A DNA stretch of 64,000 nt, taken from Nothopassalora personata. Taxonomy: Eukaryota > Ascomycota > Dothideomycetes > Mycosphaerellales > Mycosphaerellaceae. The stretch lies in contig CM066291.1 of NCBI GenBank assembly GCA_033816765.1, positions 4,712,001 through 4,776,000 of the forward strand, written 5' to 3'. Positions 28,409 through 44,298 of the stretch are shown piece after piece. How positions within the stretch are numbered: the stretch's first letter is position 1; every line of letters begins with the position of its first letter. Under the pieces are notes generated by a model. It had not been told where the DNA came from. It saw nothing but the letters and a program-made list of their open reading frames with translations, and searched no databases. The translations under genes were made by a program, and so were the position numbers.

Positions 28409-30160
28409 ATCTATATACGCTATAGAGCCCGATCGCGACGTATACGACGGCGAGTCGCCTACGCCGCTCCTAAGCCCTAGAGTATAGTAGTAGGCGCGTC
28501 GTGTAGCCTTAGTTACGAGAAGAGAGGCCTTACGGGCTAAGATTAAAGAGTAAGAGATATAGCGGGAGATCGAGCGGCTAGAGATCTTACGCGCTATAAG
28601 CGTACCGTATCTAGAGCGTATAGGAGGGAGGAGAGAAGATTACCTCCCTACTATAACCCCTACCTCTATCTCTATAACTACTAACGATAATATTATAGTA
28701 CGAGGCGCGGCCGTAGCGTATACGACGCGACCGCGTCTAAAAGAGCCGACGCCTTTTAGAGGGGATTCGATAAGGAAGGTAAGGGTATTCCTTTAGGAGC
28801 TCTTACTTATCTTCGCCCTCTTAGGTACTATATACGCGATAGACGAATTAAAGGTCCTATATAGGGTTATATACCTTAGCGGAGAGGTAAGCGAGTAATA
28901 GTATACTAACTATAGCGCCGTTAACCTTATAGAGTATATATACTAGGACTTTAAGGAGTTCTACCGAGACGTATACGGCGATCCTATAAATCGCGTACTT
29001 AATGTTATATTAGAGTACGAGGTTACGAGATAGAAGGATAACTAGATAGCGCGACAGTTTGCGACTAAGCTAGATATTATAGAGGACTAGTTAGGTAACT
29101 ACTCGGAAGCGTAACGTATACGGCACCTACTAGCGAAGCTTACGCCTCGCTTACGGTCCGCTATCGTTAGCTACTATAATATCCCTACGACTAGAGAAGA
29201 CCTAGTAGTCCTAGCCTCGCGTATCGAAAGTACCGAGCGCCGAGGTAGTAGCGGAGGGCACGACCGCGGGTAGTATATACGTCGTAAGCGTAAAGCTAAG
29301 GGCGTATATAAGCGGGTCGATCGCCTAAAGTAATAAAAGTAGATTTAAGTACCGGGCGCCTCGGGTGCGAGTTAGTAGCGAGACGCCGGTAGCTCGTCTT
29401 TAACTAGCTAGAAGTCGAAAGTAGAGTACTACGGCTACGGTAGGAAGGGTTACTATAAGACGGAGTACTAGAATAGATACCTATAGAAAGACCGCGACGC
29501 GTAAGCGGTTCGTAGGTTAGAAACTATCGAGGCTTTAACTGAGAAGGGCGAATAGGGAAAAGGTAGAGGACTAGGTAAGGGTCGCTCCTAAGTCCGAGTT
29601 TCTATATAGACCCCTTAAGGTAAGTCGATACGAGTCTAGCGCGTTACTTACGAGGCGCCGTCGAGACGCGTAAGGGCTTTCGCGAGGCTACGTTTCTTCT
29701 AGATAACGGTATAGATTTAAGCTTAGTGTCGTACAAGTATATACTCCGACACTAGATATAGCCTATTAGTAGTATAAAGCTTCTAAATCTAGAGTCGTAC
29801 GCGTAGGACTAGGAGCATTACTACAGCGCCTATACGGTTCGCGTACGACTAGCTAACGACGTAGGAGTAGAGCGCGTAAGCGACGCTATCTACTATATAG
29901 CGCCTATAGGTAGGCCGTTAGTTATTTTAGGTAGACCCTAGCGGTATCGTAATCGGATAGTAAAGGCTAATAAGGATAACTAGTAGTACTACGGTATAGA
30001 GACACCTACGATTTAGTAGCGTAATGTACGTAAGTTTCTTAAGGGTCTCGAGAGCTTAAAGTAGTTTTATACGATAAGTGTTCGGGTTATTACTATAGTA
30101 GTACCCGAAGGAGAGGGCCCCTCGTAGCCTAAAGAATTAATAGACTTCCGAGATGTATAC
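28409..30160 (+). pseudogene. gag-protease of the second gypsy element, truncated before RT
   Basis: A RIP-degraded plus-strand frame. A zinc knuckle is recognisable at 29427-29468 as Tyr-x2-Tyr-x4-Tyr-x4-Tyr with GRKG in the middle; each Tyr codon (TAC) differs from Cys (TGC) or His (CAC) by exactly one RIP-type change. An aspartic protease motif, LLDNGIDLSLVS, begins near 29696. The frame ends with PKELIDFRDVY near 30150, the linker that normally precedes RT, and is cut there by the 5' LTR of the third element. The downstream half was not found on the far side. Confidence 0.7.
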
Positions 30161-30528
30161 TATTAACGACTAATGGGTTGTGTTAACCTTAGGTTTAGAG
30201 GGGGTCCCTTAGGTCTAACTTACCCTAATTTCATTTAGGTTTAATTAGACATTTAGGCAAGCTAGTAGGACCTAGTATAGCTATTAAGATATATACTACG
30301 TAGTTAAGCATTGTAATCATAGTATTAAGGCAACAATTTAATTCATACCTCTCGAGTAGAGAGTATAGGGGTTTAGGTCTACTAATCCTCTTGTTTTATC
30401 TAGCTACTACGCTACTCGTCACGTGACCTAATTTCCCGGTCCCGGGACCGGTAAATACCCCTACTTACGTAAGTACCGCTCTATACTACCATAACTCGGA
30501 TAGGCCTACATAGGGTAGTTAGTAGACA
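30161..30528 (+). repeat. Gypsy-3 5' LTR (copy A)
   Basis: 368 bp, from TATTAACGAC (TGTTAACGAC before RIP) to GTAGACA. It contains GTCACGTGAC, one of the few CpA/TpG-bearing words left intact, next to the GC-rich palindrome at 30431-30456. Copies C and D are also exactly 368 bp. Confidence 0.85.
30431..30456 (+). promoter_or_regulatory. GC-rich palindrome, LTR copy A
   Basis: 26-bp near-perfect palindrome (one mismatched pair) around CGGTCCCGGGACCG, about 100 bp before the LTR end. The core has the CGG-N8-CCG layout that dimeric Zn2Cys6 regulators bind in other promoters; binding here is only a suggestion. Confidence 0.6.
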
Positions 30529-30589
30529 TTATTTTAGTAGTTAATAAGGGGGGTTGTTAAGTGTATACCCGGTAGCGTATTAGTATCTA

Positions 30590-30720
30590 GTTTATAAGGT
30601 TAAAATCACGGTTTAAGGTCTAAGGTTTACGGTTAAGGTTATTACTTAAGGTTAAGGTTTAAGGTTAAGGTTTACGGTTAAGGTCGACTAAGGTTAAAAA
30701 CACTTAAGGTCTAAGGTATT
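30590..30720 (+). repeat. GGTTAAGG/GGTTTA-type degenerate leader repeat
   Basis: A run of 6-9-bp units built from AAGGTTAAGG, GGTTTACGG and TCTAAGG between LTR A and gag. The inverted partial copy carries the matching CCTTAACC array at 42480-42595, so it belongs to the element. It looks superficially like telomeric repeat but the unit differs from TTAGGG. Confidence 0.7.
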
Positions 30721-30830
30721 TAGTAACAATTACGGTTATAAGGTCCTATTAAGTAACAACTAGTATTAGTACATTCTAAAGCAAGTACTACGTAACAATA
30801 GATACGGCTATATTACTAGAAAAACTTAGC

Positions 30831-33660
30831 ACCTTTGCCGACATAGGTAGAGGCTACGAACAGCCTATAAACCCTACGAAAATAGAAGGGGTCTATAGGG
30901 ATTCTATCCCTTATAAGGAGATAGAGGAATCGGAGGAAGGGGAAACACCTAAATCTAGTAAAGAAGGGAGAAGCGGAACTAGCGCCGCTAAATTAGGTAT
31001 AGGTGTAGGAACGAACAGCACAATTAGAATAGATACTATAACTATCCTCTTTAGACGATTAGTAGTAGTAATAGAAAACGCTAGCCCTCGCTTTCTACCT
31101 CTAGGAGGTACTAAGAATCCGTTCTTTAATAGCACTAATGCTACTAAGTTCTAGGAGCGGTTTAGCGACCTAATAGACTAGTATCCGCCTCGGGCATCTA
31201 TTAAGAAGGATAATTTCTAGGGTAGGTTTAAGCGCAATTGCGAAACTACTATCCGGCGCGTAGTTATAAGGCTACCTAGGTAGCTTACTAACAAGGCACG
31301 TTTTAGGAGGGCGTTCTTATTAGAGTTCTTAAGGTTTAACGCCTACTCGATATTAGGGAGTCGGGAATATCTTAAGGAGATTGTTAGGGCGTAGTAAGGC
31401 AAGAGGCCTAAAGAATAAGATATAAAGGAATTTATCCGCCTATTTATATCCTTAAGTAACCTAATTGAACCTAAGGATTTAGATAATAGCTCCCGGAGTC
31501 GCCTTCTCCTTTAGGGATTACTAGAGGTAGTCGCAAAAGCGGTCTACAAGGCTTACGGGCTTTACCTAAAGTAACCTAAGAAGTTTAGGGACTTTTAGAG
31601 GATTCTCGATAAAGCTACTAGCATCGTAGATAGTAAGGAGGGATAGAAAGCTATATATATAGATTTCCCTCTTACTTTACCTTAGCTATACCGCTTAGTC
31701 GTAAAGCAAATACCGCGCCTTAAGCCTAAGATTAATACGCTTAAGAAGGCTACCTCTAGGACTATTATTAATAATAACCTAATCTAGAAGGTAGCTAAAA
31801 TAAGTATACGTATATACTAGCGCGGTCGCGTCGCGGACGCGGGTACCTTCTACCCGAGCGAGAATTAACGCTCTATATAACCGGAGAGGCACGACTTAGA
31901 TACTAAACTGTAGGTTTACGTAATGTAGCGTCCCCTATCGTAGAATCGTAAACAGTCTAAAGCGATAGATGGTTGTTACTATAACTATAGTAGTTCGAAG
32001 CACTAGGCTAGCAATTATAGGGCGATAAGGTCCTTAATATCCCGGGGCTACGTATACCTCGCCCTAAACAACTAGTAGTATCTAGGGAAAGAAGGCGATC
32101 TACGTCCTACTAAGTTTAACTTTCGGAGGGACTATAGTAAACTAAAACTGCTCTATATACTCCCTCTACTCGAAGAACATTATAGACCGATCGAGTTTAA
32201 TAATTAGTATAAGATTCTCGCACTACGTAAGTAATAGATAGGTAGGGACTATACTAGGGTAATAAAGGTTACGCCTCCTAATTATTCTAAGCCCCCTCCT
32301 AACTTTAGGCATTTAATAGAGTATAGCCCTTAGGATGTACGGTCTAGCTAAACGGAGAAGGCTACTAGTATATATTAGGTCTTATTCGGAGAAAGTGAAG
32401 TAGAGTAGGCGGTCGACTTAGGCGAGCTTAACGAGGTATCTACCTATCCTATGCAGTCTAATAAAGTGAAAGGGAAGGTACCCGTAGGCATTCTAAAGAA
32501 TCCGCACCCGAGGACCCGGTCCTTAGCCTAGGATCTACGAGCCCGAGCTAAGGCTACTAAGAAAGTTCGCCTACAATTAGAACAGGAGATCCGGTAAGCT
32601 AAGATTAACTAGTAGGAGATTAAAATGATTAACGAAGGTAGTGCTTAAATAAGCGAAACTTAATTATTAGCTAAATCCGGGGTAACCCTAGGAAGGGGAA
32701 ATAATGCCTAAGTAAATAGACTAGGGAACGATGCTAATAAAGGACTGCCTAAGGATATGCCTATTAGTCCCGTAAACGCCCCCTTCGCATAAAGGAAGCG
32801 TATATAGAATACTAAGACTATAAGGATTAATAACTACGTCCGATAATATAGTTTAGCTAGTAATGGCCCGGTTATAAAGGAAGAGGGTATTATCTACTAG
32901 ATTAATTAGATCCTCTAGATAACGTTTCCTAATGTGAACGCCTAAGATTAGTTTCGATATAGTTGCTAGTTCGAGGCTACCCTCTTCGGTCGCGTTACTA
33001 ACACCCCCGCTCTTTAGGAGAAGCTCGCTATAGTGCGACGCCTTATAGGAAAGGACCCTAAGGTTCGGACTAGATAAGTGGTTACCTATAAAGATGAACC
33101 TAAGTATAATAAGGAGGTCTTCCGCGAAGATAGTTAGGCCTAGTATATCGGAGTGTATTTAACTATACTTTACTCTAAAGGAGCGGTCCCTACTACTAAG
33201 CTCTATAAGGACGTTAAGAAAATCGGGCTCTCTAGTATCCTTAACAACTTTACTATAGTCCCTAGTCCTTAGGTAGTAGCGGAGTTCGGGATGAATAAGA
33301 ACTAGATTAGGTACCTAATTAACGAGGGTTCCGAGGTGAATATTATCGGCTAGAGGAACGCTTATAGATTTAGGTTACCGGTAATGTCGAGTGCTTAGCT
33401 TACCTTTCAAGGTGCTAGAGGGCGGGCCTAGTTTAAAGGTATTGTAGGCAATTTAGATGTTTAGGTATTTAGGGTTTACTACTAAATAGACATGTTCATC
33501 TCCTCGGATCTAAACTTACTAACAATCCTAGGACGTCCGTAGGCCCGTAAGGTACGACTCACTGCCCGTATCTACGATAATGGTTTATAGGAGGGGACTA
33601 TTACTAGCCGTAAAGGTGAAAGTGTTATGTTTACTACCCTAGTTAGCTCGGATAGGTGTA
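30831..33660 (+). pseudogene. Gypsy-3 ORF1: gag, CCHC knuckle and aspartic protease
   Basis: All parts lie in one frame. The gag region includes NPFFNSTNATKF, then RFSDLID, GRFKRNCETTIRRV and KARFRRAFLLEFLRFNAYS. The zinc knuckle at 31977-32018 reads Tyr-x2-Tyr-x4-His-x4-Tyr, each Tyr one RIP change from Cys. The protease at about 33306-33600 has LINEGSEVNIIG, where the Asp expected in this protease family reads Asn (GAC to AAC after T, a TpG-to-TpA change), then LTILGRP. A GC-rich 90-bp patch near 31800-31890 breaks the frame style and may be an insertion. Non-functional. Confidence 0.7.
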
Positions 33661-33700
33661 AGACCCTTTAAGAACTATTGAAAGCGTCGGGAAATAGAAG

Positions 33701-33730
33701 GGTAGGTTAAGTTAAGGCGCTTAACCTACC
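33701..33730 (+). terminator. Possible hairpin at the ORF1-ORF2 junction
   Basis: GGTAGGTTAAG (33701-33711) and CTTAACCTACC (33720-33730) are exact inverted repeats with an 8-nt loop, 70 bp before the junction palindrome. It could be an RNA structure acting in termination or translation restart; function unproven. Confidence 0.4.
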
Positions 33731-33800
33731 GATTTGCTAAAGCCGGATTTAACAAAATCAGTAAGGTTCTCGCACTATCTCGGAGAAACCTCGGACTTTA

Positions 33801-33826
33801 ATTTACCGGTCCCGGGACCGGTAAAT
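33801..33826 (+). promoter_or_regulatory. GC-rich palindrome at the ORF1-ORF2 junction
   Basis: A perfect 26-bp palindrome with the same CGGTCCCGGGACCG core as the LTR copies, lying between the end of gag-protease and the start of the RT frame. Its outer ATTTA/TAAAT arms differ from the LTR version mostly at CpA/TpG positions. Confidence 0.65.
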
Positions 33827-33839
33827 AGCTATAGTAAGG

Positions 33840-36800
33840 AAAATGGATACGACTACGGCACGACGTAGCTATAGGAAGGCACGACGCATCTATAGGAACC
33901 CGGTAAGGCTCTAACGCCTAGTAACTATTTAGCTTACTTATTAGGATTACTTAGGACTGCTAGAGCAAAGGAACGAGTTGTAGAAATTAGAATAGGCGCG
34001 TTTAAGGGAGATTCTATTACTAACGTTTATTTAGTTTAAGGGGATTAGCCTTCTAAGATCCTAAGGCAATCTACATTAAATGCTTAGGCACGAAAGTAAT
34101 AAGTAGGCTAACATATAGCTAATATTAGGATGCCGTAGGTCTTCACGATGTATAAGCGTAAGGCGGATAAGAAGAAGCTAGTAGACGCGAGCGTTTACGA
34201 ACGCCTAGAATCACGAGTTAAGGGAGATATAGAATAGAAGCGTAGGGCACTGTACCTAGAATCTAAGATGCCTAAAGGATAAGGACCGTTTAATAGGAAG
34301 TACTTAACTAAGAAATTCTTAAGTATTAAGCGAGGTAGCTAAATCACTCTAGAACGACTTACCTTAATTAAGGTTAGCATTAAGCTATTACTAATAGAAA
34401 GGGCCTTATTCGATAAGATGCTCTACAGCCGGGAGGCAGTCCTCGCTTAGGATTTCAGTCACATAAGGCAAATTAGGCACGACGTCGTGCCACCTTAGAA
34501 GATTAACACGGTCCCTTATAGGCCATGGTAGGCACGCCCTATCCGGTTGCACCTAAGTCTTAGGGTAATCGTTAAGCACATAATTAGAGCCCGGATTAAG
34601 AACAACATCCTAGGATACTTATAAGGGGCATACTCTAATATCTAGTTCCTAGTCGTAAAGAAGGTTAATGCCTCTAGAAGCAATGTGCTATATCAGTTAA
34701 TTAACTTAGCTATACTCCTAAATAAGATTACTATGCGCGATGCTAACATTCCACCGGACACGGATAGCTTCTTAGAGGATTTTACCGGTTACCGAGTCGC
34801 TTTACTTATAGACCTGTTTTTAGGTTATAATTAGATCACTTTAGATAAGTCCTACCGGGACTTAATAGCCTTTATGACCCCTCTTAGCCTAGTACGTAAC
34901 ACGACTCTACCTTAAGGGGCTACTAATTTAGTTACTTAGTTCGTACGTGCGGTAACAAAAATTCTACTTAATTATATCTCGTATCGAGTAAAGCCGTTTC
35001 TCGATAACATCGGTATTAAGGGACTAACTAAGGACTATAGGAATGCCGAAGTAGAGCCTAGGCTAAGGAGATAGGTCGTTAAGCACATCGTCTCCCTAGA
35101 TCTAGTTCTTACTAACCTAGAGAGAGCTAGTACGGTGGTTGCTAGAGGCAAATCCTAATGGTTATATAAAAAGCTTAAGATTGTTAGGTACGTTACTAGC
35201 CCGGATGGTCGCTATCCTAACCTAAAGGTTATAGCTAAGATCCTAGACTAGCCTACGCCTACCTGTATTAAGGAGGTCCGCACCTATGTAGGGCTATGTA
35301 TGTACTTCCGGATATAGATCCCCTAGTTCGTTATTATCGCTCGACTAATGTATAAGCTACTAAAGAAGGACGCCGAGTTCACCTAGATAGAAAATAAGCA
35401 GTTCTTAAAAGAAGAGCTTACTAGATACCTTATATAGGCTCTAGCCTTAGTTACCCTCTACTACTTACCTAGTGCTAGGTCTATCTTTATCTTAGTTAAT
35501 ACTAGCGGCACTAGATGGGGGTGTATCGTTTCTTAAGAATTAATAGACAGTACTCGACGGCGTTACCCGGTGCGGTATAAGAGTAGAATCTAGAACGCGT
35601 TAGAATCTAGATATAATGCTAGTAAGCGGGAATGCCTTAGGGTCCTTAAGGGGCTTAAGAAGATCTAAAGATATATCACTAGCGTTAATTTTGTCCTTAA
35701 AGTTAATGCTAAGACACTTATATAGCAACTTAACCGGCCGGCTTCGGACCTGCCTAACTCGGCAATAGCCCGGTGGGTCGTATAGATTAGGCTATTTACA
35801 TTCGAAGTAAAGCACGTTACGGGAGCTAGGTATACTAGCCTAGATACCCTATCTCGTAGGCCCTCTACACCTTAGGAACCTAGGGAAGCTAACGAAGACG
35901 AAGTCGACTAGATGATTAATAATAAGCTGTTCGGGTACCCGGAGCCGGTCGACACCTATCTAGTTAAAATCTAGAAAACACGACATCTCGGGGACTAATA
36001 TTCTAAAAGCTCTTAGCAACTTACTTAGGTTATAGAAACTAGGACCCGGCCCGATAGTATTACCCGTACTAAGTACCGGCGACTAGTAAAGAAGAGCGTT
36101 AATTTCTTTATCCGGGACTAATTGCTATTCTTCTAGAAGCGCCGAGGAGTACCGTTACAACTTGTAATTAACGATAACGAGGCTTAGAAGGAGATCGTTA
36201 TAGAATGCTATAAAAGACACGGTCATCGCAGCGCTAAGGTCGTATATAACCTTATTTCCGATCGGTATTACTAGGACGGGTACTTCGCCGATGTCTCTAC
36301 GTAGGTTCGAAGTTATGCTCCTTATAGGTTTCGCGAAGGCAACTAGCGCGCTAGTAAGCTTTACTTATCGAGCCCTTAGGTCATTAGTAAGAAGTAGTAC
36401 TCGGACCCCGTCTAGGTGCATAAAAATGGATACCTCCTAGTTACGCGCGAAGCACTTAGTAACTAGATCGAGGCTAGAGTAACGAGGGCACCTCCTAGCT
36501 CTAAGACGGTTACTAAGTTTCTATACGAAGATGTCTTCTATAGGTACGGCTACTATACTAAAATTGTGCTTAATAACGCTACGGTTCATGCGGCTAAGGT
36601 TAAGCGGTTACTCGTGGGGCTTCGTGTTCGAAGGATCCAAATATTACAGTACTATCCGTAGTCTAATGCTCCGGTCGAGGCTAGACACCGTCCGATTCTT
36701 ATAGCGTTAGCAAAGCTTATAAGGAACATATACCGCGGATAGGAGTAATAGGTACCCGCTATGTTATAGGCTAATAGGACTACGACCTGTCGTACTACTA

Positions 36801-37510
36801 GAATAACGCTAGCTTAGGTCCTATATAGCTATCGCACGATTCTACCAATTAAGGTTAAGTACCCGACGTAGGCGAATTACTAATAGGGATCGGTAAGAAC
36901 GACTAAGGACCTACTTGCTATACGTGCGCGTTAACTCTAGGCTCGAGACCTTAGTTTAGAAGAGCTATATACTCGAAGAAAGCGACTAAGAGAACTTAGT
37001 AAGGACTACTTTAATTCTTACCGGAATGTTAACTCTATTAGTTTCTAGAAGGGCGACCTTATTATGAGATTCGACAAGCTATATAAGGATGACTTCTCAC
37101 GTAAGATCGGTTACCGATAGTAAGGTTCATATCGGGTGTCTAGTGTCTCTAGGGAGTTTAGTACCTATATTCTTAAGGAACTTAATAGTACGCTAATGAA
37201 GGGTGTTTAGGCACGAGAAAACCTTAAGCTAGTTCTAGAGCTTCGCCCGGATGACATAGGAGTACTAGGCCTAGATAATGGGATCGATCTCGTAATAGGG
37301 GAGGGAGAAGTCGCTAATAGCGTCGCTAATAGCGAAGATAGTAGTAATTCGAACGAGATCGAGCCTATCGCCGACGAAGACATACTACCTGTAGGAGTTA
37401 ATAAAAAGGGATCGTATCCTAGACCGGAATCTAAGAAGCTATAGATTAGGCCTTATAACCTTCCTATAGCCGAAATTTCACAGTTTAGTAGGATTGAGGC
37501 TAAGAACTAA
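33840..37510 (+). pseudogene. Gypsy-3 ORF2: reverse transcriptase, RNase H, integrase
   Basis: A single frame. RT: VLYQLINLAILLNKITMRDA, GYRVALLIDLFLGYN, DLIAFMTPLSL, and the catalytic motif FLDNIGIKG (34997-35023), where the second Asp of the active-site pair is Asn (GAC to AAC after T). RNase H: PASDLPNSAIARWVV and FEVKHVTGARYTSLDTLSRRP, typical of gypsy RNase H. Integrase: HGHRSAKVVYNLISDRYY (36218-36271), part of the zinc-binding H2C2 module, and the catalytic core with PQSNAPVEARHRP-like sequence near 36655. A basic and acidic C-terminal tail runs to about 37510. Interruptions are mainly TAG. Confidence 0.75.
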
Positions 37511-37651
37511 TTAGTTAGTAATGGCGTATAGAGTTCACTTTCCTTAGGCATGTGTTGCATATGCCCTTTAGTTTATTAAGCCGATTCGGTTATCTAGACT
37601 TCACTTTATAGGGTGTTCTTACCTTAGTTGGACCTTAGTTAGTAGAATCAC

Positions 37652-37677
37652 ATTTACCGGTCCCGGGACCGGTAAAT
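37652..37677 (+). promoter_or_regulatory. GC-rich palindrome at the ORF2-ORF3 junction
   Basis: A perfect 26-bp palindrome, identical in all 26 positions to the one at 33801-33826, placed between the integrase end and the third frame. Flanking sequences of the two junction copies are unrelated. Confidence 0.65.
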
Positions 37678-38159
37678 CGGATTACGTAATAGCGTAGCAT
37701 GCCCCTACTAAATGCTTACCTAGGTAGTTACTAGCACTGGTTTTCGGTTACATGTAGGGTTATCGGACCTTTAGTATAACCTTAATAGTACTGCTCTTAC
37801 TACTTATAAGACCGGTCTCGGCGCTACTACCTTATCACGGTTATAGGGATATACGCTAAGAGGTATACTTAAGCGCAGCTCTCTACCTACTACTTCCTCT
37901 CTTTTTCTTTAAATACTAATACTATCACTAGAGCTACTAACACATTAGACGGTTCTTTAGCCTCTCTCTCTTTACGACCTTAGCCTTCTTTAAAGCCCTA
38001 CCCTAACACTAAGCTTTTAAAGCTTACTAATACTCCGGAGTGGCACTACGAGATAGCTAGCTCTTACGATCTCACTAATAGCGAATCCTAGTTATTATAG
38101 CTTCGGCTAGTCTATCGTTACGCCCGGCTAGCTCGAGCATAGCGCTTACTAGTACTATT

Positions 38160-41100
38160 ACTAGGCTTACCCGCCTACCTTAGACCTTATTCGAGTCCCT
38201 TCGCCTACCGGATAACGTTAAGCATGTCCTTGCTAACACGAATACGCCGAAGTCCGCCGCTAATGTTATATTCCGAGAGCTTAGTCCTTAGAAGCGGGTC
38301 GAGGTATTAAAGAACTTCTATAAGGGCTTCGAGAAGGTATTCAAAGACTACTCCGTCTATGTTAACCTATTTTTTAAGGAAGTTAAGAGCGGTATAGGTA
38401 AGAGCTACTAGGATGAATTCCTTAGTAATAAGAAGCTCGATATCTTATTTCCTATCGTCGGTAAGATTCGTAAGACCGGTTTAGAGATTTGTAACCGAGA
38501 GAAGACTCTTCGAGCTACGCTTACCCGCTACTAGCTACAGTAGATAGATAATAAGATTCTTAATCGACGCGTTATCTCCGAGCTTTGTAGTACTAACAGC
38601 GGGCGCCGCTAGTTTACGGCCTTCATTAACAAGTACCTAGATTACAGTAGGGCTATTAGTAGAATTTAGAGGGCACTAATCTAGCGTATAAGGATCGGCC
38701 GTAAGGGTATAGATCGTAAGCAAATTCTAGAGCCTAGTGATCTTACCCGGTGCAATAGGGAGGCTAAAGTACGTAGTATTAATCCGTAGTCGGCTAAGAG
38801 TAGGGAGATTATTAGAAGACACCGCCTAGCCGTCTATAAGGATAGCCTTCTATACTTTATAGAGGGTACTATTACTAAGAAGTCCGCGTCCCCGGAGGAT
38901 AGTATAGCTTAACCTAGACCATCTAGCTAACAATAGCCTTAGCTACGTTAGCTACCGGGTAGTAAAGGTAAAGAACGTGTAAAGAGTACTACGCTAACTC
39001 TACTAGCCTCTACCTAGCCTATAGTCCTATCGAGAGGCGGTCGTAAGTCGAGTCGACTTAAGTAGCTCCGTATAGGCAAGAGCATAGGTAAGGGCATAAC
39101 TACGCCTACTCGATCCTCGCCTAACCGAACGCTAGATAGCGCACCTATACGCGAGGGTAGTCCGCTAGGTACACCGTTTAGTACTCTACGATCTACTCCG
39201 GCCCTAACTAAGAATAGTAATCCGATACTTACTATGTTACCTTCGGCTATAATTAGGGATGTATTAGTCTTTAAGGATTAGATCCTATAAGAAGACGAGG
39301 CCCTCCGGATTAAGCGCGCTAACTGCACCTATAATAAGCGGTACTATAGCGTTAAGTTTAGAAACTCGATTAACGTAGATAGTATTAACTAGCTACCTAA
39401 GTGCCGGATAGCGGGCCTTAAGATGCTCAAATATGCTGTCTCGGACGTTCTTAAGAGGGATGGTAAGGTTAGCGCTATAATATGCGATTAGTATGTTCGA
39501 GATTTCTACTATAAGGCCCTCTACTTTGTTACAAATCCCGGTATTACCGCTAATACCCTATGTAAGCGCGCGCTTAAGGTCTAAGACTAGCTCTTTAAAG
39601 GCAAGAGTTTTTTAGCTATTAAGGTAAAGAATGAGTCGTGGTTTCGCCCTAATAAGCGTAGTTAGAAGACTATTAACCCGCTTAGCTACCTCCGTGTTCG
39701 AGGCAAAGTCGGCACTACGAGTAGCATCGTTACGTATGCTAACTACAACTAGATCCTCGATAAATTCGGCATTAATAAAGCTAACTAAGCCGATCTTAAT
39801 AGTACCGGTACCTACATTAATAGTAATATGCTATACTAGTATAATAACGCTAAACTAGCACCGCGGGTTAAATTAGTTAGAGAAATGATAAGTCGAGAAT
39901 TCGACGTGTACCGATAGCACCTACGAGAATTGAATAAGGTTAGTAACGGCGGCGTCTACTAGAACATGTAGTATTCTCTAAGCTAATAGATTATGCGATA
40001 AGACCCCGGGGTACAGCTCTTATAAGTAGCGCTACACCCTTAACACTACACTCGGTTTATCTCCTTCCCTAGGCCTACGATTTTTAGCTTTAATAGGGCT
40101 TATTAGGGGGGTGACGCGAACACTATAGTGCAGTATGCTAGGGTCGACTTAAACCTCGAAATTGAAAACTACTAGACTAGTAACCGGCTTAACATGCTGT
40201 ACTCTCTTAACTTAGAGGGCACTAGTAGGCCGGAGTTTTTACACGGTTTTTATAAGAAAGGGAATGCTAGAGAGTTTATCTAGTAGTACTAGATTAACGA
40301 CTACATAGAAGACGGCCGATTTAAGCGTTTCTTCTCGGTTAGAGTCTAGAATTACCTAAGCAAGAATAGCATTAGCTAGTTTAGAGAGGACCTAAGCGCT
40401 AGGTAAATGCGGGTAACTACTGTAGGCGTTCTAATAAGGTAGGCCGTACATAAGAGGACACTACGTTAGATTAACCCTTACTTTATCGAGATCCGCGACG
40501 ATAACTATCTTAAACTCTAGAGAAGCTAGAGTATGCACTAGGTGATGGACCTCTATCGTAACTTTAAGACGCTAAGTAAGAGCGCTATAGGATTTAAGTA
40601 TCGACGCCTAGTACCTAGCTATCCTTTTCCTACGGCCGTATACCTTAGTAGCATTAGCCCTCTGTCCGATGCCCTAGCGGGTTTGAAGTCTTAGAACGAT
40701 AACGAAGTTATCCTTAATGCTAGAAGGTAGCTTAATGCTACGGTCCGCCTAGACTCGGAGCTCTTCTATAAGAAGATGCATAATTAGCGCGTCCGAGCTG
40801 TGAAATTAATGGACAAGTAGCTTAGCTTAGTCACTACTCTCGAGTAGATGTGCTTTATAAGCGAAGGGCGTAATAAGAGCTTCTTCCGTAACTACTATAG
40901 GAACTTCACTAACTAGCTACTTAGGGACGCGTCTAGTAAGACTAGTGTTAGCTACGACAACGAGTAGGTCTAGATAAAGGACTTGTGTAAGACTAAGTGA
41001 AACTAAGTAGTTAGTATAGGTCTATAGGCTCCTAGTTTCTAGTTAATTTCCGGCTATAGCTATAGCCTATAGGATTCTAGTCCTAATTCTAGTCCTGATT

Positions 41101-41160
41101 CTAGTTCTAATTCTAGTTCTAATTCTAGTTCTAATGCTTCGGGTATAGGTGCTTCTAGTC
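38160..41160 (+). pseudogene. Gypsy-3 ORF3: long reading frame of unknown function
   Basis: About 1000 codons in one frame, interrupted mainly by TAG, lie between integrase and the 3' LTR. The sequence is protein-like, not low complexity: for example PDNVKHVLANTNTPKSAANV, VNLFFKEVKSGIGKSY, SYLRVRGKVGTTSSIVTYAN, GFKYRRLVPSYPFPTAVYLS. A Ser/Asn-rich tail repeats SSPNSS-type units at 41070-41130. I do not recognise a domain. No membrane segment typical of an envelope protein is apparent, but RIP complicates that judgement. It could be a captured host gene, a second replication-associated ORF, or a different element inserted in the same orientation. Confidence 0.55.
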
Positions 41161-41623
41161 CTTAGATCTTACTTGTTTCTTATAGTTACTTATCTTCCCT
41201 TAACTTACCTTCTAGCTACGCGGTAGATTCGTCTTTAGATTTATTAGGTTGCTAGTACTAACGCTCACTTGTCTTATAAGTGACGTTTACGTTATTCGAC
41301 TATCTAGCCCGCTCGATTAATGCTAACATGGCTGTCTATTCCCTCGCTAGTTTTGTAGTATACGTTAGTATAGTGCGACGGATGCGAGTCGCGGTTATTA
41401 ACGTTATTATTACGGTCTCTATTAGAAGGATTCTTTCGATCTTCATAAACTGTCGCTAGTAGGCCCTAGGACTGCCTAACATCTTATATATTAAGCTGAA
41501 TAGTAGGGTGAGCTACTATACTACTACAAGACCACCTTAGCTTACAGCAACTAATTAAGCTACCTATAATGCCCGGGCTTACTACTTTAGAACCTAAGGA
41601 TAGGTTCGTAATAGGGGAGGATA

Positions 41624-42013
41624 TATTAACGACTAATTGGTTATGTTAACCTTAGATTTGGTTATGTCGACCTTAGGTTTAGAAGGGGGGTTCCTTAGGT
41701 CTAACTTGCCCCTATTTCATTTAGGTTTAATTAGACATTTAGGTGAGCTAGCGGGACTAGTATAGCTGTTAAGATATATACTACGCAGTTAAGCATTGTA
41801 AGCGTAGTATTAAGGTAACAATTCAATTTATACCTCTCGAGTAGAGGGTATAGGGGTTTAGGTCTACTAATCCTCTTGTTTTATCTAGCTACTGCGCTAC
41901 TCGTCACGTGACCTGATTTCACGGTCCCGGGACCGGTAAATACCTCTGCTTACATAAGCGCCGCTCCATACCACCACAACTTAGACAGGCCTACATAGGG
42001 TGGTTAGTAGACA
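41624..42013 (+). repeat. Gypsy-3 3' LTR (copy B)
   Basis: 390 bp, directly after the polypurine tract. It is 22 bp longer than copies A, C and D because of a short tandem duplication of a GGTTATGTTAACCTTAGATTT-like word at its start. It carries the palindrome at 41916-41941. Confidence 0.85.
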
Positions 42014-42014
42014 T

Positions 42015-43028
42015 TACTAGTCTATTAGGTCGCTAAACCGCTCCTAGAACTTAGTAGCATTAGTGCTATTAAAGAACGGATTCTTAGTACCTCCTAGAGG
42101 TAGAAAGCGAGGGCTAGCGTTTTCTATTACTACTGCTAATCGTCTAAAGAGGGTAGTTATAGCATCTATTCTAATTGTGCTATTCGTTCCTACACCTATA
42201 CCTAATTTAGCGGCGTTAGTTCCGCTTCTCCCTTCTTTACTAGATTTAGGTGTTTCCCCTTCCTCCGATTCCTCTATCCCCTTATAAGGGATAGAGTCCC
42301 TATAGACCCCTTCTATTTTCGTAGGGTTTATAGGCTATTCGTAGCCTCTACCTATGTCGGTAAAGGTACTAAGTTTTTCTAGTAATGTAGCCGTATCTAT
42401 TATTACGTAGTGCTTACTTTAGAATGCGCTAATACTAGTTATTATTACTTAATAGGACCTTATAACCGTAATTGTTACTAAATACCTTAGACCTTAAGTA
42501 TTTTCGACCTTAGTCGACCTTAACCGTAAACCTTAACCGTAAGTAATAACCTTAACCGTAAACCTTAAACCTTAAACCGTAAGTTTAACCTTATAAACTA
42601 GATGCTAATACGCTACCGGGTGTACACTTAATAACCCCCCCTTATTAACTACTAAAATAATGTCTACTAACTACCCTATATAGGCCTATACGAGTTGTAG
42701 TAGTATAGAGCGGTGCTTATGTAAGTAGGGGTATTTGCCGGTCCCGGGACCGGGAAATTAGGTTACGTAACGAGTAGCGTAGTAGTTAGAAAAACAAGAG
42801 AATTAGCGGACCTAAACCCATATACCCTCTACTCGAGAGGTATAAATTAAATTGTTGCCTTAATGCTACGCTTACAATACTTAACTACGTAGTATATATC
42901 TTAATAGCTATACTAGGTCCTACTAGCTTACCTAAATGTCTAATTAAACCTAAATAAAATTCGGGCAAGTTAGACCTAAGGGACCCCCCTCTAAACCTAA
43001 GGTTAACACAACCTATTAGTTGTTAATA
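42015..43028 (-). mobile_element. Inverted truncated copy of the gypsy-3 5' end
   Basis: Reverse complement of 30161-31183: LTR C (42661-43028, 368 bp), leader with the CCTTAACC repeats, and about 350 bp of gag. It starts 1 bp after LTR B and is truncated inside gag. Its palindrome is at 42733-42758. It shows about the same level of RIP as the main copy. Confidence 0.8.
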
Positions 43029-43768
43029 CTAGTACTAACACTTACTTGTTTTATAAATGGCGTTCGCATTATTCAACTATCTAGCCCGTTCGATTAATGC
43101 TAATATAGCTACCTATTCCCTCGCTAGTTTCGTAGTATACGTTAACGTAGTACGACGGGCGCGAGTCGCGGTTATTAACGTTACTATTACGGTCTCTATT
43201 AGAAGGATCCTTTCAATCTTCATAAACTGTCGCTAGTAGGCCCTAGGATTACCTAACATCTTATATATTAAGCTAAATAATAGGGTGAGCTATTGTACTA
43301 CTATAAGACTACCTTAGCTTATAGCGACTAACTACGCTACCTATAATGCCCGGACTTACTACTTTAGAACCTAAGGACAGGTTTGTAATAGGGGAGGATA
43401 TATTAACGACTAATAGGTTATGTTAACCTTAGGTTTAGAGGGGGTCCCTTAGGTCTAACTTGCCCTAATTTTATTTAGGTTTAATTAGACATTTAGGTAA
43501 GCTAGTAGGACCTAGTATAGCTATTAAGATATATACTACGCAGTTAAGTATTATAAGCGTAGTATTAAAGAAAAGAATTCAATTTATACCTCTCGAGTAG
43601 AGGGTATAGGGGACTAAGTCCGCTAATCCTCTTATTTATCTAGCTACTACGCTACTTGTTATGTAACCTAATTTCACGGTCCCGGGACCGGCAAATACCC
43701 CTGCTTACATAAGCGCCGCTCTATACTATTACAACTCGGACAGGCCTACATAGGGTGGTTAGTAGACA
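43029..43768 (+). mobile_element. Truncated direct copy of the gypsy-3 3' end
   Basis: 43029-43400 repeats 41245-41623, ending in the same polypurine tract, and is followed by LTR D (43401-43768, 368 bp) with a palindrome at 43671-43696. The remainder of this second element is absent. Confidence 0.8.
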
Positions 43769-44298
43769 TTACTACTAAGTATAGAGGGTATCTAGTCGGC
43801 TAAGAAGGTCGTTAATATATATTTAGGGAATAGTCCTCTTAAAGTAGGATTTTAGGGAACGTTTACGAGTTATAAAGTCCTCGTATTCTTTCTTCTAATC
43901 CCTATATATCGTATACCGGAGGTTGTACGATATACTAATTCTACTAAACAAGGTCTATATAGCTATATTATCGTCTTTAGTAGGAGGGTTAGGTAGAGGG
44001 CCTATAACCGGTTCCTAAGGTTTAGGTAATAGATCGAGATCTATTTCCTAGGTTGTCGTACCGTCCTATAACTTCCCTTCTATATACTTCTATAAGTCTA
44101 TTCTAACTACTTTAGCCTAAGTCTAAAGGTAGAAGTTATTAAATATAGAGGAATTATAGTAGTTTAGTTCCTTTATTATCGTAGCGGACGGGTAGTCCTA
44201 AAGGTATTGCCTAAGATCTATTATATACCTCGATTAGGTCTAATAGATATATATAATTCCGAATAGAGACCCTAAGTTACTTAACTTAGGCTTATAAC
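43769..44298 (-). pseudogene. Copia gag remnant
   Basis: On the minus strand, from near the right LTR inward, segments such as YRDQKKEYEDFITRKRSLKS and YINDLLS-LDTLYT resemble copia gag (UBN2-type) sequence, with TAG interruptions. It is cut at the border with LTR D. It supports the minus-strand orientation of the outer element. Confidence 0.55.

What the first reader, a model, noticed from the sequence alone, without database searches (positions are those of the whole stretch)
30161..42013. Gypsy element whose coding units are punctuated by copies of one GC-rich palindrome
The palindrome around CGGTCCCGGGACCG occurs six times: in LTR copies A, B, C and D (30431-30456, 41916-41941, 42733-42758, 43671-43696) and, as perfect 26-bp versions identical to each other, exactly between ORF1 and ORF2 (33801-33826) and between ORF2 and ORF3 (37652-37677). 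Every frame of the element is therefore preceded by one. The 14-bp core is identical in all six even though the surrounding DNA is heavily mutated, though it has no CpA/TpG for RIP to hit. This suggests a multi-ORF retroelement in which a promoter or factor site (CGG-N8-CCG layout fits a Zn2Cys6 dimer) was copied to each ORF, giving separate transcripts instead of one gag-pol mRNA. An alternative is that the palindrome is a recombination or integration hotspot.
Basis: partly seen in the sequence, partly recalled or inferred. Interest (0 to 1): 0.8.

Follow-up and report, generated by a model that had tools for sequence, protein, structure and literature searches.

The report
Shared palindrome in a dead retrotransposon
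A mutated fungal retrotransposon carries one short DNA palindrome in its end repeats and at two fixed internal places; its two main genes look joined by an ordinary ribosomal frameshift rather than separate messages, but the palindrome before its unusual third gene may mark a second promoter.

Summary
The palindromes are real: six exact 14-mers in the window (0.11 expected), 1,208 in the 54.5-Mb genome, reversed control 0. Patterns with flanks assign 1,164 of the 1,208 to three fixed sites of one Gypsy family: J1 293, J2 286, LTR 585. The junction palindromes are family traits.

Special conservation is not shown: the core varies no less than RIP-immune bases of the same class at a significant level.

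Separate gag and pol transcripts are contradicted. Upstream of J1 stands a textbook -1 frameshift layout: G GGA AAT in 48 of 48 rows, the strongest local hairpin of the element 5 nt later, and a gag stop in 48 of 48. J1 starts 105 nt further, inside the pol frame.

J2 differs. It lies in a spacer of at least 0.5 kb, noncoding in part by length variation, before a third ORF of about 1,000 codons without detected homologue. There the palindrome with an E-box-like motif resembles an inverted LTR segment and a pyrimidine tract follows in 26 of 26 rows. Best reading: an LTR-type regulatory site, J2 being an internal promoter for ORF3 as in foamy viruses. That step is inferred.

The parts
30158..30533 (+). 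5' LTR (bounds approximate); palindrome at 30431-30456, TCACGTGA at 30419-30426
   Evidence: repeat and BLAST matches to 41660-42016 and 43398-43771; bounds approximate
30431..30456 (.). LTR palindrome, imperfect outer arm
30780..33710 (+). gag-protease frame (mod 3 = 0), start approximate, stop codon 33708-33710, riddled with RIP-type stops
   Evidence: codon model, third-position variation, stop in 48 of 48 rows; no Pfam match; protease assignment is my reading
33689..33695 (+). slippery heptamer G GGA AAT in gag register
   Evidence: 48 of 48 rows; 1 of 2 such heptamers at 977 in-frame positions
33701..33730 (+). 12-bp stem-loop starting 5 nt after the heptamer
   Evidence: at least 10 pairs in the stretch in 47 of 48 copies
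33695..37510 (+). pol frame (mod 3 = 2): RT, RNase H, integrase; likely stop at 37508-37510
   Evidence: Pfam matches in RT-RNaseH-IN order; 76 protein relatives; frame tallies
33801..33826 (.). J1 palindrome, inside the pol frame
37511..38040 (+). spacer between pol and ORF3; 37890-38040 is hypervariable in length
   Evidence: length differs by a non-multiple of 3 in 18 of 25 rows; no codon-position bias from 37510 to 37900
37652..37677 (.). J2 palindrome in the spacer
37682..37689 (.). RIP-decayed TCACGTGA at the same offset from the palindrome as in the LTR, inverted
37893..37910 (+). longest pyrimidine run of the element (18 nt)
   Evidence: run of 16-19 nt at the same place in 26 of 26 rows
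38190..41100 (+). ORF3 frame (mod 3 = 0), bounds approximate (start between about 38040 and 38190), no homologue found
   Evidence: codon model, third-position variation to 39390, copies; no match
41624..42016 (+). 3' LTR with palindrome 41916-41941
42015..43035 (-). inverted 5' end of another copy, with LTR palindrome 42733-42758
43029..43771 (+). 3' end of a further copy, with LTR palindrome 43671-43696

Best explanation
The palindrome is a fixed cis-element of one abundant, RIP-inactivated Ty3/Gypsy family. Gag-protease and Pol were made from one LTR-driven mRNA by -1 ribosomal frameshifting at GGGAAAT (anatomy shown, activity inferred), so J1 is a site inside the pol frame and not a promoter between genes. 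The palindrome is most likely a sequence-specific DNA-binding site of the LTR promoter (inferred). With a neighbouring TCACGTGA it also stands, inverted, in the spacer after pol (sequence shown), where together with a pyrimidine-rich core promoter it drives ORF3 as an internal promoter (inferred). It would work like the two-promoter layout of foamy viruses; it is no member of that group.
For: Family-wide fixed sites. Frameshift layout: heptamer and gag stop in 48 of 48 rows, strongest of 11,060 local 35-nt folds, z -3.28. Pol frame: 0 of 22 stop positions fixed across J1 against 4 of 30 and 8 of 25 in the other frames. LTR-J2 similarity of 50 bp at 80%, inverted, e 1.5e-7, with TCACGTGA or its RIP-type derivatives at the same offset in 28 of 30 J2 loci and 20 of 20 LTRs. 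Length variation of the spacer rules out a frame through 37890-38040. Pyrimidine run of 16-19 nt in 26 of 26 rows.
Against: No transcript data. J1 carries the palindrome without the TCACGTGA motif and inside a frame, which a pure promoter role does not explain. No codon-position bias from 33723 to 33990, so translation across J1 is open but not shown. Fixed stops are a weak guide: the RT frame itself has 14 of 49 stop positions fixed in 30 rows and the gag frame 15 of 36. Two pairs of the frameshift stem are A-C in 6 and 11 of 48 rows, which RIP on one strand can explain. The LTR-J2 likeness ends after 19 outward bases (16 of 19 identical, 17 of 30). Core conservation is not above expectation. 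ORF3 could be spliced instead.
Confidence: 0.5

Rival explanations
1. One reading: each ORF has its own promoter marked by the palindrome and is transcribed separately.
For: A palindrome lies near the 5' part of each frame in the family.
Against: Frameshift layout between gag and pol; J1 inside the pol frame; the ATG after J1 is in 5 of 48 rows; J1 lacks the flank shared by LTR and J2.
Confidence: 0.08
2. ORF3 is expressed by splicing from the LTR transcript, and the palindromes act on RNA: hairpins with a self-complementary CCGG loop that serve dimerisation or packaging.
For: J2 and J1 are the second and third strongest distinct 35-nt folds of the element; z -2.99 and -2.13. Rotifer LTR elements are described as expressing ORF3 from spliced messages (PMC5408684, passages).
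Against: The LTR copy folds no better than shuffles (z -0.32). The three sites share one sequence, which a mere hairpin does not need. No Rfam family.
Confidence: 0.2
3. The palindrome is a small selfish or recombinogenic insertion without function, copied into three places of an ancestral element and then spread with it.
For: Perfect symmetry at J1 and J2; stability explained by RIP immunity alone.
Against: At most 44 of 1,208 copies are unassigned to the family; no palindrome-to-palindrome deletions among 48 neighbours on C1; LTR-J2 likeness goes beyond the palindrome.
Confidence: 0.17

Closest known systems
Fungal Ty3/Gypsy LTR retrotransposons (Pol relatives P0004 from a metagenome; P0022 Penicillium argentinense; P0026 Penicillium atrosanguineum)
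   Same: LTRs, Pol with RT, RNase H and integrase in that order; 76 relatives at E <= 0.001, best 38% identity over 86% of the query
   Different: shared LTR/internal palindrome and a third ORF of about 1,000 codons; whether the relatives have these could not be seen, their DNA is not held
-1 programmed ribosomal frameshift signals of retroviruses (recalled)
   Same: X XXY YYZ heptamer in register, 5-nt spacer, stem-loop, zero-frame stop close by
   Different: activity untested; last base of the heptamer is T in 48 of 48 rows
Foamy virus internal promoter and Tas (PMC3798896, passages)
   Same: a site type shared by the LTR and an internal place upstream of a 3' gene
   Different: internal site after pol, no env; no transactivator known; foamy virus Pol is translated independently of Gag, here a frameshift is likely
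LTR elements with an extra ORF3, e.g. bdelloid rotifer families (PMC5408684, abstract and passages)
   Same: third ORF after pol of non-obvious function
   Different: ORF3 here matches nothing searched; no shared palindrome is mentioned there (term count 0)

Membership tests
Ty3/Gypsy LTR retrotransposon | long terminal repeats | tested here: met
Ty3/Gypsy LTR retrotransposon | Pol order RT-RNase H-integrase | tested here: met
   RVT_1 312-395 (E 0.018), RT_RNaseH 551-654 (5e-10), Integrase_H2C2 784-829 (0.016); homologues
Ty3/Gypsy LTR retrotransposon | gag and protease domains | tested here: inconclusive
   no Pfam match in stop-masked frames
-1 ribosomal frameshift signal | slippery heptamer in register, spacer, stem-loop | tested here: met
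-1 ribosomal frameshift signal | shifts ribosomes | not testable with these tools
   needs a reporter
Foamy-type internal promoter | cis-site shared by LTR and internal promoter | tested here: met
Foamy-type internal promoter | transcription start in the internal region | not testable with these tools
   no RNA data
Foamy-type internal promoter | downstream gene encodes a transactivator binding both sites | tested here: inconclusive
   ORF3 has no match
Spumaretrovirus | env gene and Gag-independent Pol | tested here: inconclusive
   Pol appears to be a frameshift product; no env recognised, but ORF3 is unidentified
Zn2Cys6 factor site | CGG-N8-CCG bound by a Zn2Cys6 dimer | not testable with these tools
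   the layout is present; at most 44 of 1,208 14-mers could lie outside the family

The most novel reading that the evidence does not exclude
A fungal Gypsy element evolved a foamy-virus-like two-promoter circuit: ORF3 encodes an element-specific DNA-binding activator or anti-silencing factor that recognises the 26-bp palindrome in the LTR and in its own internal promoter at J2, with J1 a further binding site inside pol.
Probability: 0.15. Interest if true: 0.75.

Novelty: new variant of a known kind. Interest (0 to 1): 0.45.

Why it matters
If J2 is an internal promoter, a palindrome present about 1,200 times in one genome and practically confined to one element would give a clean handle on how a fungal retroelement controls a third gene of unknown function, and perhaps itself. 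The frameshift layout corrects the ORF map, and the comparison of many RIP-mutated copies shows how frames, spacers and cis-sites of a dead element can still be read.

Tried and rejected
Palindrome held constant by selection: not supported. Minority cells in the 16-bp core against the mean of class-matched sites: J1 2 against 10.4 (P 0.10, 30 rows), J2 4 against 5.8 (P 0.48, 29 rows), LTR 5 against 12.7 (P 0.19, 21 rows). All three lie below expectation, so weak constraint is not excluded.

A shorter variant suggested by 4,151-bp spacings: rejected, it is a copy with about 311 bp inserted near window 35490. ATG after J1 as pol start: rejected (5 of 48 rows). Fixed stops as proof of true stops: given up, known coding frames have them too. 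A first count of indel types in the spacer (17 of 19 not multiples of three) may split single indels; I replaced it by net lengths.

Relatives' DNA: the 26-mer has 0 matches in viral contigs and a Pol alignment finds no relative there. ORF3: no match; its query is stop-masked and RIP-mutated. Rfam: none. The sigma-70-type scan of the spacer says nothing about a fungus. Papers: the 14-mer is in none held; the listings showed no titles on such a site in fungal LTR elements, one search listed none, and one search gave nothing used. 'Not in print' is not claimed beyond these.
Full report
Observation. The 14-mer is at all six stated places, 0.11 expected by chance. The junction copies are identical perfect 26-mers. 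The window lies in a genome of 54.5 Mb in 40 contigs with 1,208 exact 14-mers; the reversed pattern has 0. The 26-mer with RIP-tolerant arms occurs 584 times. Patterns with flanking bases assign 293 sites to J1, 286 to J2 and 585 to the LTR, 1,164 of 1,208; the other 44 were not looked at and may have mutated flanks. First-look candidates number 375 for J1, 342 for J2 and 792 for the LTR, 40 scored each. On contig C1, where 27 J1, 27 J2 and 57 LTR sites are listed, 46 of 48 same-strand neighbours within 6 kb follow the order LTR-J1-J2-LTR and 2 are LTR-LTR (copies without the exact pattern are not seen). The layout is a trait of the family.

Sampling. Thirty J1 loci and 30 J2 loci were the best matches to window queries and include the window's own copy. 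The exact 14-mer is in 28 of 30 at J1 and 27 of 30 at J2. Twenty more stretches were chosen because they hold the palindrome; 18 were J1 and 2 J2, so these say nothing about its frequency. Of 40 listed LTR places 20 were fetched; with the window 17 of 21 have the exact 16-bp core.

Conservation. RIP-type contexts vary at 0.089 and 0.049 per cell against 0.0175 elsewhere. The core has no CpA, TpG or TpA. Matched by base and CpG class its variation is not significantly low at any of the three sites. The arms vary as RIP would make them.

Frames. A codon model trained on the RT region and the position of non-RIP variation (gag 21, 11, 33; pol 21, 60, 34 variable sites at positions mod 0, 1, 2) put gag-protease in frame 0 and pol in frame 2. 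In 33600-34200 the pol frame has 22 stop positions, none fixed in 48 rows, against 4 of 30 and 8 of 25 in the other frames. Fixed stops alone prove little: the RT frame has 14 of 49 fixed in 30 rows. The gag stop at 33708 is TAA in 44 and TGA in 4 rows; TGA is not what RIP makes at CpA or TpG from a sense codon, so this stop is likely genuine.

Frameshift. Four codons before that stop lies G GGA AAT in gag register, identical in 48 of 48 rows; it is one of 2 such heptamers at 977 in-frame positions. Five nucleotides later begins a 12-bp hairpin; windows over it have the lowest energy of 11,060 in the element (window copy only). In 47 of 48 copies the stretch forms at least 10 pairs, energies -23.0 to -9.7; two stem pairs are A-C in 6 and 11 of 48 rows, as one-strand RIP would give. 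J1 begins 105 nt after the heptamer. Recurrent indels here are 21 nt (11 rows) and 3 nt (3 rows); one row has a 1-nt deletion. Codon-position bias is clear from 33991 to 34150 (10 against 0 and 2) and absent from 33723 to 33990, so the stretch with J1 is open but weakly constrained, like the poorly conserved leaders of related Pol proteins.

J2 and ORF3. The likely pol stop at 37508 is in 29 of 29 rows. In 37890-38040 the length differs from the window by a non-multiple of three in 18 of 25 rows, so no frame runs through; from 37678 to 37890 and from 38040 to 38600 no net change was seen. From 38190 to 39390 third positions of frame 0 vary most (50 of 258 against 34 of 270 and 24 of 327); recurrent indels are 3 or 6 nt, and 4 frame-breaking and 2 in-frame ones are single-row (26 of 30 rows kept, 4 dropped for low identity). 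In the 36 scored copies one frame carries the ORF3 match over most of the query, with a break near residue 1155 in 3, and each copy holds dozens of stops. ORF3 has no match in Pfam, PDB or two protein searches.

Shared module. The LTR-J2 similarity is 50 bp at 80%, inverted, including the palindrome. Read outward in one J2 copy and one LTR copy, 16 of the first 19 bases agree, ending in TCACGTGAC; then the likeness stops (17 of 30). TCACGTGA is intact in 10 of 20 LTRs and 0 of 30 J2 loci, where 28 show RIP-type derivatives; other J2 copies keep it, e.g. at C1:108026. J1 shares only the palindrome. The only pyrimidine runs of 12 nt or more on the + strand of the element are 37893-37910 and 37961-37973 (51 of 5,000 mononucleotide shuffles of the spacer reach 18 nt), and a run of 16-19 nt is at this place in 26 of 26 rows. 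Pyrimidine tracts are common in fungal core promoters (recalled; one search gave nothing usable). This makes J2 a candidate internal promoter.

Comparison. Foamy virus Tas binds the internal promoter and, at higher level, the LTR (PMC3798896, passages). Rotifer ORF3s are described as expressed from spliced messages (PMC5408684, passages), the main rival here. Verdict: palindromes real and family-wide; separate gag and pol messages contradicted; J2 as internal promoter plausible and unproven.

Noticed in passing
L035 and L036 (G000:C1:1367501-1387000): Two copies stand head to head; the 8.9-kb arms are 99.4% identical, while the 29 other J1 copies compared match the window at about 94-95%, which suggests an inverted duplication after RIP.
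   Followed up: partly
G000:C3:3981028, 3986484, 3991940: Three J2 sites on one strand at a spacing of 5,456 bp twice, as in a tandem duplication.
   Followed up: no
window 42015-43771: Remains of two further copies, one inverted, directly behind the 3' LTR.
   Followed up: partly
window 33857: A 21-nt in-frame deletion marks 11 of 48 J1 rows and may define a subfamily.
   Followed up: no
window 32696-32702: A second in-frame GGGAAAT in the gag frame, about 1 kb before the likely shift site.
   Followed up: no
window 41073-41132: Short tandem repeat of a 12-nt unit near the end of ORF3.
   Followed up: no
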